This document shows, in pieces, positions 53,496-58,662 of a DNA stretch of 64,000 nucleotides. How positions within the stretch are numbered: the stretch's first letter is position 1; the number at the start of each line of letters is the position of its first letter. Source of the DNA: Methanogenium organophilum (GTDB lineage: Archaea; Halobacteriota; Methanomicrobia; Methanomicrobiales; Methanomicrobiaceae); NCBI RefSeq assembly GCF_026684035.1, contig NZ_CP113361.1:558001-622000 (forward strand). The letters run 5' to 3'. The notes beneath the pieces were generated by a model. It searched no databases and was not told the origin of the DNA. It was given only the letters and a program-made list of their open reading frames with translations. The translations under genes and the position numbers were made by a program.

Positions 53496-54437
53496 TCACT
53501 GCAGAAAATTCCCGACATCTTCCGGGAGGGTCAGCACCACCGGTTCAAGATGCATGCGCTCCATAAACGCGGAGTCGCTCATTGCCGCAGGCCCCGGATT
53601 TATCCGTGCAATAAGGGAACAAAATGCGCGGAAGCCCCCGTCCGGCCGGTTTGCCGCATCACAGAAAAGTGCCATATTAAAGGCATAGTGCCCCGCACGC
53701 CTGTAGAGGGAGAGCACCCGCCCGATCCCTTCCGCAAGAAGGCCGCACCAGGGTTCCAGTTCATCAACGGTCCTCACCGGAAGGTATGCCCGCACCTCCT
53801 TTTCACCCAGCGGAACCGCGTGCGCGAAGAATGGCAGTTCCTCCCCAAAGAGGTGACGAGGGCCGCCCATCTCCTGTTCCACAAGGCAATCCCGGCACAT
53901 TCTCCCGGTTTTGCTGAAGAAGTTCTCTGAGCGTTCAATCGCAATGCCCGCATGAACGGTCGGCAGAGCATCGGCGATCCCCTGCATATGCGGGTGAAGC
54001 ATGCTGGCGCCTGCCGACGGAAGAGAATTCCAGTTGCAGGAAGCATATCCCCCATCACCTGAAAGAGCAGCAATCTGTCCGTACAGGGCATCCTCGATCT
54101 GCCCTGCCAGAACCTCCGGAGGATTATGTGACGCGGTTATGACGGTCACCACATGGCTCCGGCCAAAAGGATAAAGATTCGGGAATGTGACACTCTCCCC
54201 TATTGTGATGCGCGTACCGTCAGAGAAGACCGGCGTCTCAGTAAAAATCCGTTCCGGGCAGAAGACACAGGGAAGATCACCGTCCGATACAGAAGCCCGC
54301 GGAGGATCAATACCCCGGTGGGTTCTGCCGGGTGCGATACGGCACTGCAGACCGGTTAAGAGGTCCCTGCGGTACTGAAATACGCCATTATCGGTCTGAT
54401 ATTCCTCAATCTGAAATAATTCATCCATATCATTCAC
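53496..54437 (-). CDS. galactose-1-phosphate uridylyltransferase-like (HIT superfamily) protein
   Basis: 313 residues of GalT fold. It has CVFCPE near residue 58 and CRDCLVEQE later (zinc-type cysteines), and SMLHPHMQG with the HPH histidine near residue 148 where GalT has its nucleophile motif HPHGQ. The start is a GTG at 54437 after AAAGGA; ATG at 54428 is an alternative. Substrate unknown; may be a nucleotidyl transferase or phosphorylase of another sugar. Same strand as mer upstream but 146 bases away. Confidence 0.7.
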   Translation of the reverse strand: MNDMDELFQIEEYQTDNGVFQYRRDLLTGLQCRIAPGRTHRGIDPPRASVSDGDLPCVFCPERIFTETPVFSDGTRITIGESVTFPNLYPFGRSHVVTVITASHNPPEVLAGQIEDALYGQIAALSGDGGYASCNWNSLPSAGASMLHPHMQGIADALPTVHAGIAIERSENFFSKTGRMCRDCLVEQEMGGPRHLFGEELPFFAHAVPLGEKEVRAYLPVRTVDELEPWCGLLAEGIGRVLSLYRRAGHYAFNMALFCDAANRPDGGFRAFCSLIARINPGPAAMSDSAFMERMHLEPVVLTLPEDVGNFLQ

Positions 54438-54583: not shown

Positions 54584-55585
54584 TCAGATAATGTACTTTC
54601 CGAGAAGACGGATAGAGTTTGTCATGTCAGGACCAAGTGGAGAACCGAAGATAATCTGGGTAACACCAGATGCAGTCAGGTCTTCACACTTCTCCTTAAC
54701 CATCTCAGGGGTACCTGCAATGGTGAATGCGTCAATCTCTGCGTCGCCAACAAGGCCGCCGACTGCACCGAAGTCAAAGCGTGAAAGTGCGTCTTTGATC
54801 TTGCCGACATTGTCAAGGTCAAGTCCGTGGCGCTCCAGCAGGGGTGGAGGCGAACCAGCTGCGATGAATGCTGCAACAATCTTTGCTGCATTGCGTGCCT
54901 TCTTTTCGCTCTGGTCGATGGACATTGCGGTGTATGCACCAACATCGAACTTCTTGAACTTCTTCTCATCGACTGCATCACATGCTTCTTTGATCAGTGG
55001 GATTGCAATTGCAAAGTCCTTCGGGTTGGATGCATTGATAAGTGCTCCCTGACCGATTTCACCGGCAAGTGCGAGCATCTTAGGGCCCTGTGCACCGATG
55101 TAGACAGGGATCTGCTTCTTCTTTGCTGGCAGGGTCACACCGGTGAGCTTTGCACCATCGTAGTCGAAGAATTCCATGTCGCCGGTCTTCTTGACTTCCT
55201 CTCCGGCACAGAGAGCCTTAATCTGCTGGACACCTTCTTTCAACCGTGCAACAGGCTTTGATGCCTCAATTGCAAGTTTTGGGAGGGTTGACAGGTCACC
55301 AGGTCCGATACCAAGGACCGCACGGCCGTCAGAGATCTCGTTTAAGGTGCACATGAAGGAAGCAATTGCTGCCGGTGTGTCAGTAAACGTGTTCATGATA
55401 CCCGGGCCCATCTTAATTGAGTCGGTTGCCTCAGCAATAGCGGCAAGGGTCGGGTAGCAGTGACGGTTGTTGTAGTGATTAGTAATCCAGGCAAAGTCAA
55501 TATCTTTCTGCTCTGCAAGTTTGCAGTAGTTAACTACCTGCTTTACAGTGATATTTCCTGGCACAAATTCGATACCATAACTCAT
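54584..55585 (-). CDS. mer: methylene-H4MPT reductase (F420-dependent)
   Basis: Reduces methylene-H4MPT to methyl-H4MPT with F420H2 during methanogenesis. The 333-residue protein is a luciferase-type TIM barrel: MSYGIEFVPGNITVKQVVNY, FAWITNHYNNRHCYPTLAA, the GRAVLGIGPGDLSTL motif, and PVYIGAQGPKM. AGGTGAAAG precedes the ATG. Length is standard. Confidence 0.97.
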   Translation of the reverse strand: MSYGIEFVPGNITVKQVVNYCKLAEQKDIDFAWITNHYNNRHCYPTLAAIAEATDSIKMGPGIMNTFTDTPAAIASFMCTLNEISDGRAVLGIGPGDLSTLPKLAIEASKPVARLKEGVQQIKALCAGEEVKKTGDMEFFDYDGAKLTGVTLPAKKKQIPVYIGAQGPKMLALAGEIGQGALINASNPKDFAIAIPLIKEACDAVDEKKFKKFDVGAYTAMSIDQSEKKARNAAKIVAAFIAAGSPPPLLERHGLDLDNVGKIKDALSRFDFGAVGGLVGDAEIDAFTIAGTPEMVKEKCEDLTASGVTQIIFGSPLGPDMTNSIRLLGKYII

Positions 55586-55859: not shown

Positions 55860-58106
55860 ATGAGAATACTTGCAATCGGGCTCGGCGGGGCGGGCACACG
55901 GATTGTTGATCTTCTGTATAACCACGACATTAAAAGCAGAGTAGGATGCGTTTCTGCAATTGCTGTCGATATAGACGGAAACAGCCTGCGGCAGCTTTCA
56001 CATATACCGGATAATGCGCGAATGCATTTCCCGGCAATTGACCCTGAGATCCATTTTGATGTAACATCCACCATCAATGTGGAAGAGGTGATGACCCTCA
56101 TCCAGAAGATGGACACCTTTGAAATAGACTCAATTATGATCTTTGCCGGCCTGGGAGGAAGTGTAATCGATGCCATCCCACAGCTTACCGAAGAGCTGCG
56201 TAAATCCTATATCGAACCGATATTTGGAGTCTGTGTTCTTCCGATGCGTAATGAGGGGAAGCGTCGCTCTTCAAAGGCCGCGGACGATATCAAACGGATA
56301 AACAGTGTGCTTGATGCGGTAATTGTCTTTGATAACGAGACCTGGTTCGAACGCCTGAAAGCCGAGTATGACGAGTATAGCATGGCAAAGGACGGTCCGT
56401 CCATCAGTGCATACAAGCGCAAAGTATTCCCGGAGAATCCACGGGACATCTATGCCATTCTGAATGAGAAGATAGCACGCCAGATCGGCCTTCTTCTCCG
56501 CGCGGGCGAATTCAGTGAGACCGGGGTAGAAGCAGCAGAGATTGTCCTTGACGCCGGAGAAGTCTTAAACACCCTTAAGGGGAACGGGCTTGTGGCAATC
56601 GGATATGCCACCGAACCCCTGCAGAGCTCATTTCGCGACCGGTTTAATCAGTGGCGATCAGATGCATACTTCTCAGAGACCTCCCATAAGCGGGCAACAC
56701 GTATTGTAACGCTTGCCAAACGCGCTGTCTATGAGGAAATCTCTGTCCCCTGTGATATTACCAGCTCAGACAAGGCACTTGTCCTCATCGCAGGGCCTTC
56801 ACAGGAACTGTCCATGAAAGGGTTTCAGACGGTGCGCAAATGGATTGACCGAAGCATCTCCGGCCTTGAGATGCGCTCAGGTGACTATCCGGTGATGAAC
56901 ACACGATTTGTGGGTATTATCATCGTCCTGTCCGGCATTGGAAATATTCCCCGCATTACTGAACTCGGTGAGATCCGTCGCGAATATGAATACGAACAGG
57001 AACATGCGCCAGAACCCGTCGTCGATATTCCGCAGGAGGACGAGGAGGACAGGGAGGACATGTACCCGGAGGAAGATGAGGCGGCATGGGCTCCTTCTCC
57101 TGTTCAGCCAGAGGACGAACAAAAAGAGGTCCACGATTTTGAGATCAGCGATCTCTTTGAAGATGAGTCGGCCGAAACCGAATTCATGCAGGAGCGGGAA
57201 TCTGAAAATTCACCCTGCGAAGAATATATCTGCCCTCAGGAAGGGAATGAATATTCCACATATTCCCCGTATCCATCATCGGGAGAAGAAGACGAACTGC
57301 AGGACGAACCTAAATATGAGGTGACCATGGCAGCAAAAGATGGCAAACAGGTGCTGAATGATGAAGTGCTTACCCTTGAAGGGGTGGCGCGCCGTGATAA
57401 AAAAACCGAAAAGAACCACGATGATAAAATATCCATCGGAGTAAAAGCCCAAAATAACGGTCCTGATGAAAAACTCTCACTTCCGGGACGCGAGGAGAGA
57501 ACGATCGCTGATATGACACGAATGACAGATGGAGGAGGACAAAAACCACCAAAGAACTCTGTCTTCGGTCTCAAGGACATACCGGGATCGGACAACAGGG
57601 GACCACGTGATACCGCGCTTGTCGGTGAGAAATTACGCTTCGGGGAAAAGGAAAAACGACCGAATGATTCATCCTTTAGCGGGAAAGATGTCAAGGTTTC
57701 ATTTGTCAAAACACCGGACGAGTCCGCATACATGGGACGTTCCTTCTCCGTTACGTCTGCACCAAAGGCAAACGACAGTGCACTCATGGGAAAAAAAATC
57801 TCCGTGAAATCCTCCGGAATACGTCCGAACGATAGTGCACTGATGGGAAGTTCTGTACGGCTTTCCCGTGGTCCGCCAAAAACAAAGGAGATCCTCAACG
57901 GAGATGTGAAGATGTCTGCACGGGTACCTGCGCCGAAAGACGACCTCCTCACCCGTGCAGAACGGCGGATGCAAAAAACCAAGGACGCAGCAAAAGAACC
58001 GGAAACAGAATCACCGTACAGAAAGGGTACCATTTCAAGTGGATATGAAAAGAAGACGGAACCGGAAGAGAACGACCAGGATGACGACCTCTTCTGGATA
58101 AAATAG
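55860..58106 (+). CDS. divergent FtsZ/tubulin-superfamily GTPase with long repetitive tail
   Basis: 748 residues. Residues 1 to about 370 align with the FtsZ/tubulin fold: MRILAIGLGGAGTRIVDLLY (glycine-rich loop 1), IMIFAGLGGSVIDAIPQLTE where FtsZ has GGGTGTG, FGVCVLPMRNEGKRRSSKAA, and a T7-like IVLDAGEVLNTL with Asp and Glu. An acidic linker (about 380-470) and a basic/polar tail follow. Residues 565-691 hold about seven repeats of 18-19 residues, consensus N/D-D/E-S-A-x-x-G-x-x-I/V-x-V/L, e.g. NDSALMGKKISVKS. The tail ends DDDLFWIK. ACGGAG lies nine bases before the ATG. The family is not recognised by name; cytoskeletal role is inference. Confidence 0.7.
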   Translation: MRILAIGLGGAGTRIVDLLYNHDIKSRVGCVSAIAVDIDGNSLRQLSHIPDNARMHFPAIDPEIHFDVTSTINVEEVMTLIQKMDTFEIDSIMIFAGLGGSVIDAIPQLTEELRKSYIEPIFGVCVLPMRNEGKRRSSKAADDIKRINSVLDAVIVFDNETWFERLKAEYDEYSMAKDGPSISAYKRKVFPENPRDIYAILNEKIARQIGLLLRAGEFSETGVEAAEIVLDAGEVLNTLKGNGLVAIGYATEPLQSSFRDRFNQWRSDAYFSETSHKRATRIVTLAKRAVYEEISVPCDITSSDKALVLIAGPSQELSMKGFQTVRKWIDRSISGLEMRSGDYPVMNTRFVGIIIVLSGIGNIPRITELGEIRREYEYEQEHAPEPVVDIPQEDEEDREDMYPEEDEAAWAPSPVQPEDEQKEVHDFEISDLFEDESAETEFMQERESENSPCEEYICPQEGNEYSTYSPYPSSGEEDELQDEPKYEVTMAAKDGKQVLNDEVLTLEGVARRDKKTEKNHDDKISIGVKAQNNGPDEKLSLPGREERTIADMTRMTDGGGQKPPKNSVFGLKDIPGSDNRGPRDTALVGEKLRFGEKEKRPNDSSFSGKDVKVSFVKTPDESAYMGRSFSVTSAPKANDSALMGKKISVKSSGIRPNDSALMGSSVRLSRGPPKTKEILNGDVKMSARVPAPKDDLLTRAERRMQKTKDAAKEPETESPYRKGTISSGYEKKTEPEENDQDDDLFWIK

Positions 58107-58108
58107 GA

Positions 58109-58534
58109 TTAGCGGCAGGAGACAGCACCATTGCTGTCTTGGTACCGCCCCCCATATTCCCGTCCCCCTGCTTTTACTTCATGCATGATGATCTGCACCA
58201 CACGTTCACCTACAGAAAGAGAAACATCTTCCGGCCCCTGATTCACCAGACAGAGAGTCAGTTGTCCCCGAAAACCGGGATCAACAAACCCACCGCCGAT
58301 GAGCACGCCCCGCCGACCGAAGGACGAGCGGCACATGAGGGTTGCGGCCACATCCGCCGGAAGTTCTACCCGTTCAAGCGATGCAACAAGGGTGCATTCA
58401 CCTTTCCGTAGGAGATAGTCTTCTGCTGAGCGCAGGTCATAGGACGCAGGTTGCTGCGATTCTTCGCTATATGGCGTGATCACAAGATTGTCTGATGCTA
58501 TTCGTTCACAGATGTCTGACTCCGAGAGAATCAT
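58109..58534 (-). CDS. dUTPase/dCTP deaminase family protein, probably dUTPase
   Basis: 141 residues of dUTPase/dCTP deaminase (Dcd) fold, short against about 190 for Dcd. Motifs: CRSSFGRRGVLIGGGFVDPGF with the conserved Asp, GQLTLCLVNQGP, and YGGRYQDSNGAVS at the C-terminus. In deaminases the position within IxLE(F/I)xN is a catalytic Glu; here it is Cys. Loss of the deaminating residue with the Asp retained suggests dUTP hydrolysis. ATG at 58537 is also possible. Convergent with the FtsZ-like gene. Confidence 0.75.
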   Translation of the reverse strand: MILSESDICERIASDNLVITPYSEESQQPASYDLRSAEDYLLRKGECTLVASLERVELPADVAATLMCRSSFGRRGVLIGGGFVDPGFRGQLTLCLVNQGPEDVSLSVGERVVQIIMHEVKAGGREYGGRYQDSNGAVSCR

Positions 58535-58662
58535 CATATGAAAGTTATCCCTGTGAGGGGAAAACTGCTCTTACCCGGAAGAGAGCATACGGGCAGGAAC
58601 ATACGGGAGAAGGGAGTGTTCATCCAGAATGGTTATCTTCCTGTACCACGAATAAGATGGGT

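What the first reader, a model, noticed from the sequence alone, without database searches (positions are those of the whole stretch)
55860..58106. Divergent FtsZ/tubulin-like GTPase with altered T4 loop and repetitive tail
The N-terminal 370 residues keep the FtsZ/tubulin order of motifs, but the FtsZ loop GGGTGTG is replaced by AGLGGSV, while the T7-like region keeps acidic residues (LDAGE). The protein is twice the length of FtsZ because of an acidic linker and a tail with repeats. It stands beside mer and dUTPase-type genes, not beside known division genes. It may be a new cytoskeletal protein or a membrane-remodelling GTPase, such as the non-canonical FtsZ-like families proposed in archaea.
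Basis: partly seen in the sequence, partly recalled or inferred. Interest (0 to 1): 0.8.

Follow-up and report, generated by a model that had tools for sequence, protein, structure and literature searches.

The report
CetZ relative with lost GTPase loops
This gene encodes a relative of the archaeal cytoskeletal protein CetZ, kept in essentially every genome of one order of methane-making archaea, that has lost the loops holding the energy molecule GTP but usually carries a long floppy tail ending in a tip like that of the cell-division protein FtsZ, so it may be a non-engine part linking two cell skeletons.

Summary
ORF 55860-58106(+) encodes 748 aa: a tubulin/FtsZ-fold core (1-376), an acidic disordered linker, short basic repeats and a conserved tip. 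It is a CetZ-family paralogue, not an FtsZ: Pfam CetZ_C E=7e-45; best solved relatives are Haloferax CetZs; the FtsZ cut-off is missed. It is not the FtsZ-like family proposed for archaea, whose likely member lies elsewhere in this genome with an intact GGGTGSG loop. All 119 genomes of the order sampled have a copy, usually in a conserved mer/nrpR/dut neighbourhood. None of 124 distinct members keeps the T4 signature; in 36 aligned members T3 is lost too, while base/ribose residues (T5, T6, H7), the T7 Asp/Glu and the CetZ C-terminal domain persist. The core is under strong purifying selection (dN/dS about 0.07), so this is not decay. The tail usually ends in Phi-x-W-Phi, resembling FtsZ1/FtsZ2 of the same order and unlike canonical CetZ; archaeal SepF binds that FtsZ peptide. 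Best explanation: a non-hydrolysing CetZ subunit acting through its T7 face and tethered by an FtsZ-like tip. Fold, loop loss and conservation are shown by sequence and model; nucleotide state and partners are inferred. New variant of a known kind.

The parts
55860..58106 (+). CetZ-family gene without T3/T4 phosphate loops ('pseudo-CetZ'), 748 aa
   Evidence: ORF; Pfam; fold; family-wide loop table
55872..55904 (+). T1 loop, AIGLGGAGTRI; the three glycines of GxGxxG are kept in 36/36, but canonical Gln10 is replaced (Gly in 91%, Thr in 8%)
56022..56075 (+). T3 region: canonical KGHG-V-G-[TA]-D-N is deleted or replaced in all aligned members
56148..56180 (+). T4 region GLGGSV-IDAIP in place of GLGGGTGSGGxP (one residue deleted; no member keeps the signature)
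56238..56267 (+). T5 region; Glu132 (97%) and Gly133 (91%) kept as in canonical CetZ
56316..56345 (+). T6, FDNETW; Asn159 (guanine contact by position) invariant
56439..56513 (+). H7 helix; Asn202 kept in 97% (guanine contact by position), LLLRAGEF
56538..56588 (+). T7 loop EIVLDAGEVLNTLKGNG; Asp231 100%, Glu234 94%; dN/dS of residues 220-245 about 0.015
56448..56975 (+). CetZ_C domain (residues 197-372)
56988..57419 (+). acidic, fast-evolving disordered linker (residues 377-520; dN/dS 0.35-0.51)
57480..57929 (+). conserved tail block LPGRxxRxxADMTRMT...PKxSxFG, then ~18-19 aa repeats of the type PNDSALMGKKISVKSSG (repeats start at residues 564, 582, 601, 619, 637, 656, 674)
58080..58103 (+). 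C-terminal tip DDDLFWIK; Phi-x-[WF]-Phi tip in 55/66 tailed members, as in FtsZ1/FtsZ2 tips
54584..55585 (-). mer (luciferase-like fold; F420-dependent methylene-H4MPT reductase by family knowledge and context), divergent neighbour conserved through the order; context, not part of the protein
58109..58537 (-). dUTPase/dCTP deaminase-type gene, convergent neighbour; in many relatives an nrpR-like gene lies between it and the pseudo-CetZ; context

Best explanation
It is an ancient, vertically inherited CetZ paralogue of the Methanomicrobiales that has lost the phosphate-holding half of the nucleotide pocket (T3 and T4) while keeping the base/ribose side (T5 Glu, T6 Asn, H7 Asn), the T1 glycines, the catalytic T7 face and the CetZ C-terminal domain. 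Proposed mechanism: it cannot hydrolyse GTP itself, but its T7 face can still dock on the GTP of a canonical CetZ subunit, so it acts as a non-hydrolysing subunit or end-cap (possibly a GTPase activator in trans) of CetZ filaments. The long disordered tail tethers it elsewhere: its tip imitates the C-terminal peptide of FtsZ1/FtsZ2, which archaeal SepF reads, so it would couple the CetZ system to the SepF/FtsZ membrane-anchored division machinery. Shown by sequence and model: homology, fold, loop loss, conservation, purifying selection, tip resemblance. Inferred: lack of hydrolysis (about 0.85), action on CetZ filaments through T7 (about 0.4), SepF binding by the tip (about 0.45). The single confidence given is for the mechanism in outline, not for every step together.
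For: CetZ_C and Tubulin Pfam matches over cut-off, CetZ_C also over cut-off in the most divergent members; best solved relatives 4b46 and 4b45. All 119 order genomes carry it (every best E <= 1.5e-64, whereas the best canonical CetZ scores 5e-49). T3/T4 lost in 36/36 against intact in 38/38 canonical CetZs in the same alignment, while N159, N202, E132, D231, E234 are 94-100% conserved; 0 of 124 distinct members keep GGGTG[STA]G. dN/dS core 0.06-0.08, T3-T4 stretch 0.03-0.04, T7 about 0.015. The own genome also has FtsZ1, FtsZ2, an intact canonical CetZ and SepF, so the proposed partners exist. Tip Phi-x-[WF]-Phi-x0-1 at the C-terminus: 55/66 tailed members, FtsZ1 30/30, FtsZ2 28/29, canonical CetZ 0/43, neighbouring genes 1/614. 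Archaeal SepF binds the FtsZ C-terminal peptide with a near-invariant GID motif (PMC8178401), and H. volcanii SepF pulls down FtsZ2 (PMC8187382); several members (f3, Methanofollis-type) end in GIDWI.
Against: No direct evidence of partner binding or of filament association. The tip is short; 46/66 exceed the 95% background score against an FtsZ PSSM, and their scores are well below those of FtsZ itself. Related sequences are not independent, so the counts are not a probability. Some lineages lack the tail altogether (14 sampled members), so the tether cannot be the universal function. No division gene and no other cetZ gene is nearby. Conserved T5/T6/H7 residues leave open that a nucleotide is still bound.
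Confidence: 0.4

Rival explanations
1. It is a scaffold that self-assembles without nucleotide: the conserved T7 face meets a remodelled top face of another copy, making static filaments or patches tethered by the tail.
For: T7, H7 and the C-terminal domain are the most conserved parts; the remodelled T3-T4 stretch is itself under strong constraint within the genus (dN/dS 0.03-0.04), as a protein-protein surface would be.
Against: After GLGG the T4 replacement is variable between genera (S, T, N, R, G, A), not a fixed new interface motif; base-contact residues would have no obvious reason to stay.
Confidence: 0.25
2. It still binds GDP, GMP or another purine ligand through the retained base/ribose side, and is a nucleotide sensor or slow GTPase with a rebuilt phosphate site.
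For: T1 glycines 100%, T6 Asn 100%, H7 Asn 97%, T5 Glu 97% kept.
Against: No glycine/threonine/serine-rich replacement loop appears at T4 and the T3 segment is deleted in all 36; T2 Asn becomes Asp in 97%, which would disfavour nearby phosphates.
Confidence: 0.2
3. It is a regulator tied to methanogenesis or nitrogen control (mer, mtd, tfx, nrpR, dut neighbours), unrelated to cytoskeleton or division.
For: The neighbourhood mtd-mer-(pseudo-cetZ)-nrpR-dut is conserved through the order.
Against: The adjacent genes are divergent or convergent to it rather than in one operon, and synteny may only reflect vertical descent; the CetZ filament face is kept.
Confidence: 0.08
4. A decaying duplicate.
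For: Loss of catalytic loops; frame broken in the M. cariaci draft.
Against: Kept in 119/119 genomes, core dN/dS about 0.07.
Confidence: 0.02

Closest known systems
CetZ family (H. volcanii CetZ1/CetZ2, PDB 4b46/4b45; Pfam PF21011 + PF00091)
   Same: Fold, CetZ_C domain, T7 Asp/Glu, T6/H7 contacts
   Different: T3 and T4 lost, no acidic PLF-type tip, usually an extra disordered tail; lies outside all canonical CetZs in the tree
The two CetZs per Methanomicrobiales genome catalogued by Brown and Duggin 2023 (PMC9856176)
   Same: Their deeper, more diverse 'non-Halobacteria-like' set in Methanomicrobiales probably includes this gene: the genomes here typically have one canonical and one divergent copy
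   Different: I found no mention of lost GTP loops, the tail or the FtsZ-like tip in the main-text sections I read; their supplement could not be read, so the identity is not proven
FtsZ1/FtsZ2 of the same genomes
   Same: Superfamily fold; C-terminal tip of the type Phi-x-[WF]-Phi
   Different: FtsZ keeps GGGTGTG; this protein scores 37 bits against the 295-bit FtsZ cut-off
FtsZl1 / Tubulin_2-type proteins (Makarova and Koonin 2010, PMC2875224)
   Same: Non-canonical superfamily members in archaea
   Different: FtsZl1 keeps the GGGTG(S/T)G loop and has coiled coil; the likely member in this genome is L307:1887-5141
Plastid ARC3 (from memory, not tested here)
   Same: A non-standard FtsZ-like domain fused to an extra region that regulates a canonical filament system
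   Different: Plant plastid protein with a different extra domain; the resemblance is functional only and recalled

Membership tests
CetZ family | CetZ_C domain (PF21011) over gathering score | tested here: met
   153 bits against cut-off 21.6; 117-139 bits in divergent members
CetZ family | CetZ fold | tested here: met
   Foldseek on an AlphaFold model: 4b46 E=5e-28, TM 0.84 on target
CetZ family | Intact GTP-binding T4 signature GGGTGSG and T3 loop | tested here: not met
   0/124 (T4), 0/36 (T3). So it is filed as a CetZ-family paralogue by descent, not as a CetZ GTPase
CetZ family | T7 catalytic Asp/Glu | tested here: met
   Asp231 100%, Glu234 94%
CetZ family | Acidic C-terminal tip ending in PLF or like | tested here: not met
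   canonical tips nearly all PLF-type; none in this family
CetZ family | GTP-dependent polymerisation | not testable with these tools
   needs purified protein
FtsZ (TIGR00065) | Score over equivalog cut-off | tested here: not met
   37.1 against 295.2 bits
FtsZ (TIGR00065) | C-terminal conserved peptide | tested here: inconclusive
   tip resembles it in 55/66 tailed members but binding is untested
FtsZl1 (Makarova-Koonin) | Intact GGGTG(S/T)G plus coiled-coil and helical C-terminal region | tested here: not met
   T4 lost; no Tubulin_2 match at E <= 1; tail predicted disordered
SepF-binding partner | Binds SepF through C-terminal peptide | not testable with these tools
   no complex prediction available; SepF is present in the genome

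The most novel reading that the evidence does not exclude
A whole archaeal order keeps a dead-GTPase tubulin-superfamily subunit that joins CetZ filaments by its catalytic face and hooks them to the SepF/FtsZ division machinery through an FtsZ-mimicking tail tip, a built-in link between two tubulin-type cytoskeletons.
Probability: 0.25. Interest if true: 0.8.

Novelty: new variant of a known kind. Interest (0 to 1): 0.6.

Why it matters
Tubulin-superfamily function is normally explained by GTP binding and hydrolysis. Here a paralogue without the phosphate loops is kept under strong selection in every genome sampled of a large methanogen order. It offers a natural separation of the T7 (activating) face from the nucleotide face, and a testable link, through the FtsZ-like tip, between the poorly understood CetZ system and SepF/FtsZ division in methanogens.

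Tried and rejected
FtsZl1/Tubulin_2 membership: rejected (T4 lost, no Tubulin_2 hit; a separate gene in this genome fits). Tail shared with other proteins: the tail half finds nothing else in the genome even at E <= 10. Division-gene context: none found; context is mtd, tfx, a galT-like gene, mer, nrpR, dut and ribosomal L3/L4. Pseudogene: rejected by dN/dS and universality. Single-origin test: the lost-loop clade is monophyletic at 96% in one tree, but the long-branch member L106 falls outside it with weak support when more outgroups are added, so a single loss is likely but not proven by the tree; the nrpR-type neighbour of L106 supports orthology. Full-length AlphaFold: tail pLDDT mostly 30-40 and no confident structure for the tip. 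Literature searches for a pseudo-GTPase FtsZ and for a CetZ1 T7 mutant (E218A) found nothing in the open library.

Full report
What is there. The ORF at 55860-58106(+) is 748 aa with an ATG start. Pfam finds CetZ_C (residues 197-372, E=7e-45) and Tubulin (2-164, E=1e-13); the FtsZ equivalog model is far below cut-off (37 against 295 bits). Among solved structures the best sequence relatives are Haloferax volcanii CetZ1 (4b46, 6e-50) and CetZ2 (4b45, 1e-30). An AlphaFold model of the core from 62 homologues (pLDDT 83, pTM 0.86) matches 4b46, 4b45 and 3zid first and FtsZs next. The tail is predicted disordered apart from one short low-confidence helix.

How widespread. All 119 genomes sampled in the class, all of one order, have a copy with E <= 1.5e-64, far better than the canonical CetZs (best 5e-49). 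Of 60 close relatives 57 have it; the three without are incomplete genomes. Outside the order the best hits are much weaker, and those examined are ordinary CetZs with intact loops. Named relatives are Methanogenium, Methanoculleus, Methanomicrobium, Methanofollis, Methanocalculus and Methanoregula; the window is closest to Methanogenium. The neighbourhood is conserved: mer divergent in 57 of 74 loci, the convergent nrpR-like gene in 43 and the dut-type gene in 47 (some loci end too early to show them). In the window the nrpR-like gene is missing and dut follows directly. The name nrpR rests on my reading of the sequence, not on a profile search.

What is lost and what is kept. In a joint alignment of 36 members and 38 canonical CetZs the canonical proteins keep T3 (KGHG...G-[TA]-D-N) and T4 (G-L/M-GGGTGSGG) without exception; in the 36 members the KGHG of T3 is deleted in all and T4 is GLGG followed by a variable residue, a one-residue deletion and no Thr-Gly-Ser-Gly. 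In 124 distinct members none has GGGTG[STA]G. Kept are the T1 glycines (100%), T5 Glu132 (97%), T6 Asn159 (100%), H7 Asn202 (97%), T7 Asp231 (100%) and Glu234 (94%). T2 Asn37 is Asp in 97%. By position Glu234 matches CetZ1 Glu218 in the alignment to 4b46. That T3/T4 hold phosphates, T5/T6/H7 the ribose and base, and T7 the neighbour's active site is established knowledge of the superfamily, not tested here.

It is not decay. Against four congeneric copies dN/dS is 0.063-0.083 for the core, 0.030-0.044 for the T3-T4 stretch and about 0.015 for T7; the acidic linker is looser (0.35-0.51) and the repeat block intermediate (0.09-0.16). Synonymous divergence is high, so the values are approximate.

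The tail. Most members have roughly 90-760 residues after the core; 14 of the sampled members have little or none. Tailed members share an acidic linker, often a block LPGRxxRxxADMTRMT...APKDSxFG, repeats like PNDSALMGKKISVKSSG, and a tip. In the full-length alignment of 31 proteins the only invariant tail residue is Trp746. The pattern Phi-x-[WF]-Phi-x0-1 at the very end occurs in 55/66 tailed members, 30/30 FtsZ1, 28/29 FtsZ2, 0/43 canonical CetZ and 1/614 C-termini of neighbouring genes. Archaeal SepF binds the FtsZ C-terminal peptide centred on GID (PMC8178401), and H. volcanii SepF binds FtsZ2 (PMC8187382). The own genome has SepF, FtsZ1, FtsZ2 and an intact CetZ. FtsZ1 is in 31/31 and FtsZ2 in 30/31 order genomes sampled.

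Mechanism. The simplest reading is a CetZ subunit that cannot run the GTP cycle but can still present T7, so it may cap CetZ filaments or activate the terminal GTP, with its place in the cell set by the tail tip through SepF or another reader of the FtsZ peptide. The last two steps are inference. Tailless members show that the core must have a function without the tether.

Phylogeny. With FtsZ as outgroup the family is a sister clade to all canonical CetZs sampled (96% support). When more outgroups are added the most divergent member, L106, moves to the base with weak support, so the single origin of the loss is likely but not settled. L106 lacks T3 and T4 but still has the T2 Asn, which suggests that the phosphate loops went first.

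What is known. Brown and Duggin (PMC9856176) report two CetZs per Methanomicrobiales genome, one like Halobacteria CetZs and one deeper; the latter is probably this gene, but I found neither the lost loops nor the tail in the main-text sections read. Makarova and Koonin (PMC2875224) note that some archaeal FtsZ paralogues lack motifs and remain obscure, and one of their searches used the GGGTG motif, which this family cannot match. So the gene family is probably catalogued in part, while its loop loss as an order-wide, selected trait and its FtsZ-like tip appear undescribed in the library searched.

Noticed in passing
   Followed up: partly
L308:486-2799: The canonical CetZ gene of this genome overlaps the listed start of a downstream ORF for a protein with a signal-peptide-like start, helical region and C-terminal TM-like segment; upstream, divergent, are an FAD-dependent oxidoreductase-like gene and a glycosyltransferase-like gene (by eye).
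   Followed up: no
FtsZ2 C-termini, loci L277-L305: FtsZ2 tips differ sharply between genera (LIDFIR, LLEWVG, LLDWVM, FDWIM), a possible record of co-evolution with SepF.
   Followed up: no
window 53496-54437 (-): Conserved gene beside mer in 54 loci, with no Pfam match at E<=0.001; looks like a galactose-1-phosphate uridylyltransferase-type (HIT-like) protein by eye.
   Followed up: no
L056 / L138 (M. cariaci): The reading frame of the pseudo-CetZ is broken near residue 100 in this draft genome; sequencing error or real loss was not settled.
   Followed up: no
L227-L230 (G032, G057, G037; f6): Some genomes of family f6 (Methanocalculus-type) carry two canonical CetZs besides this protein.
   Followed up: no
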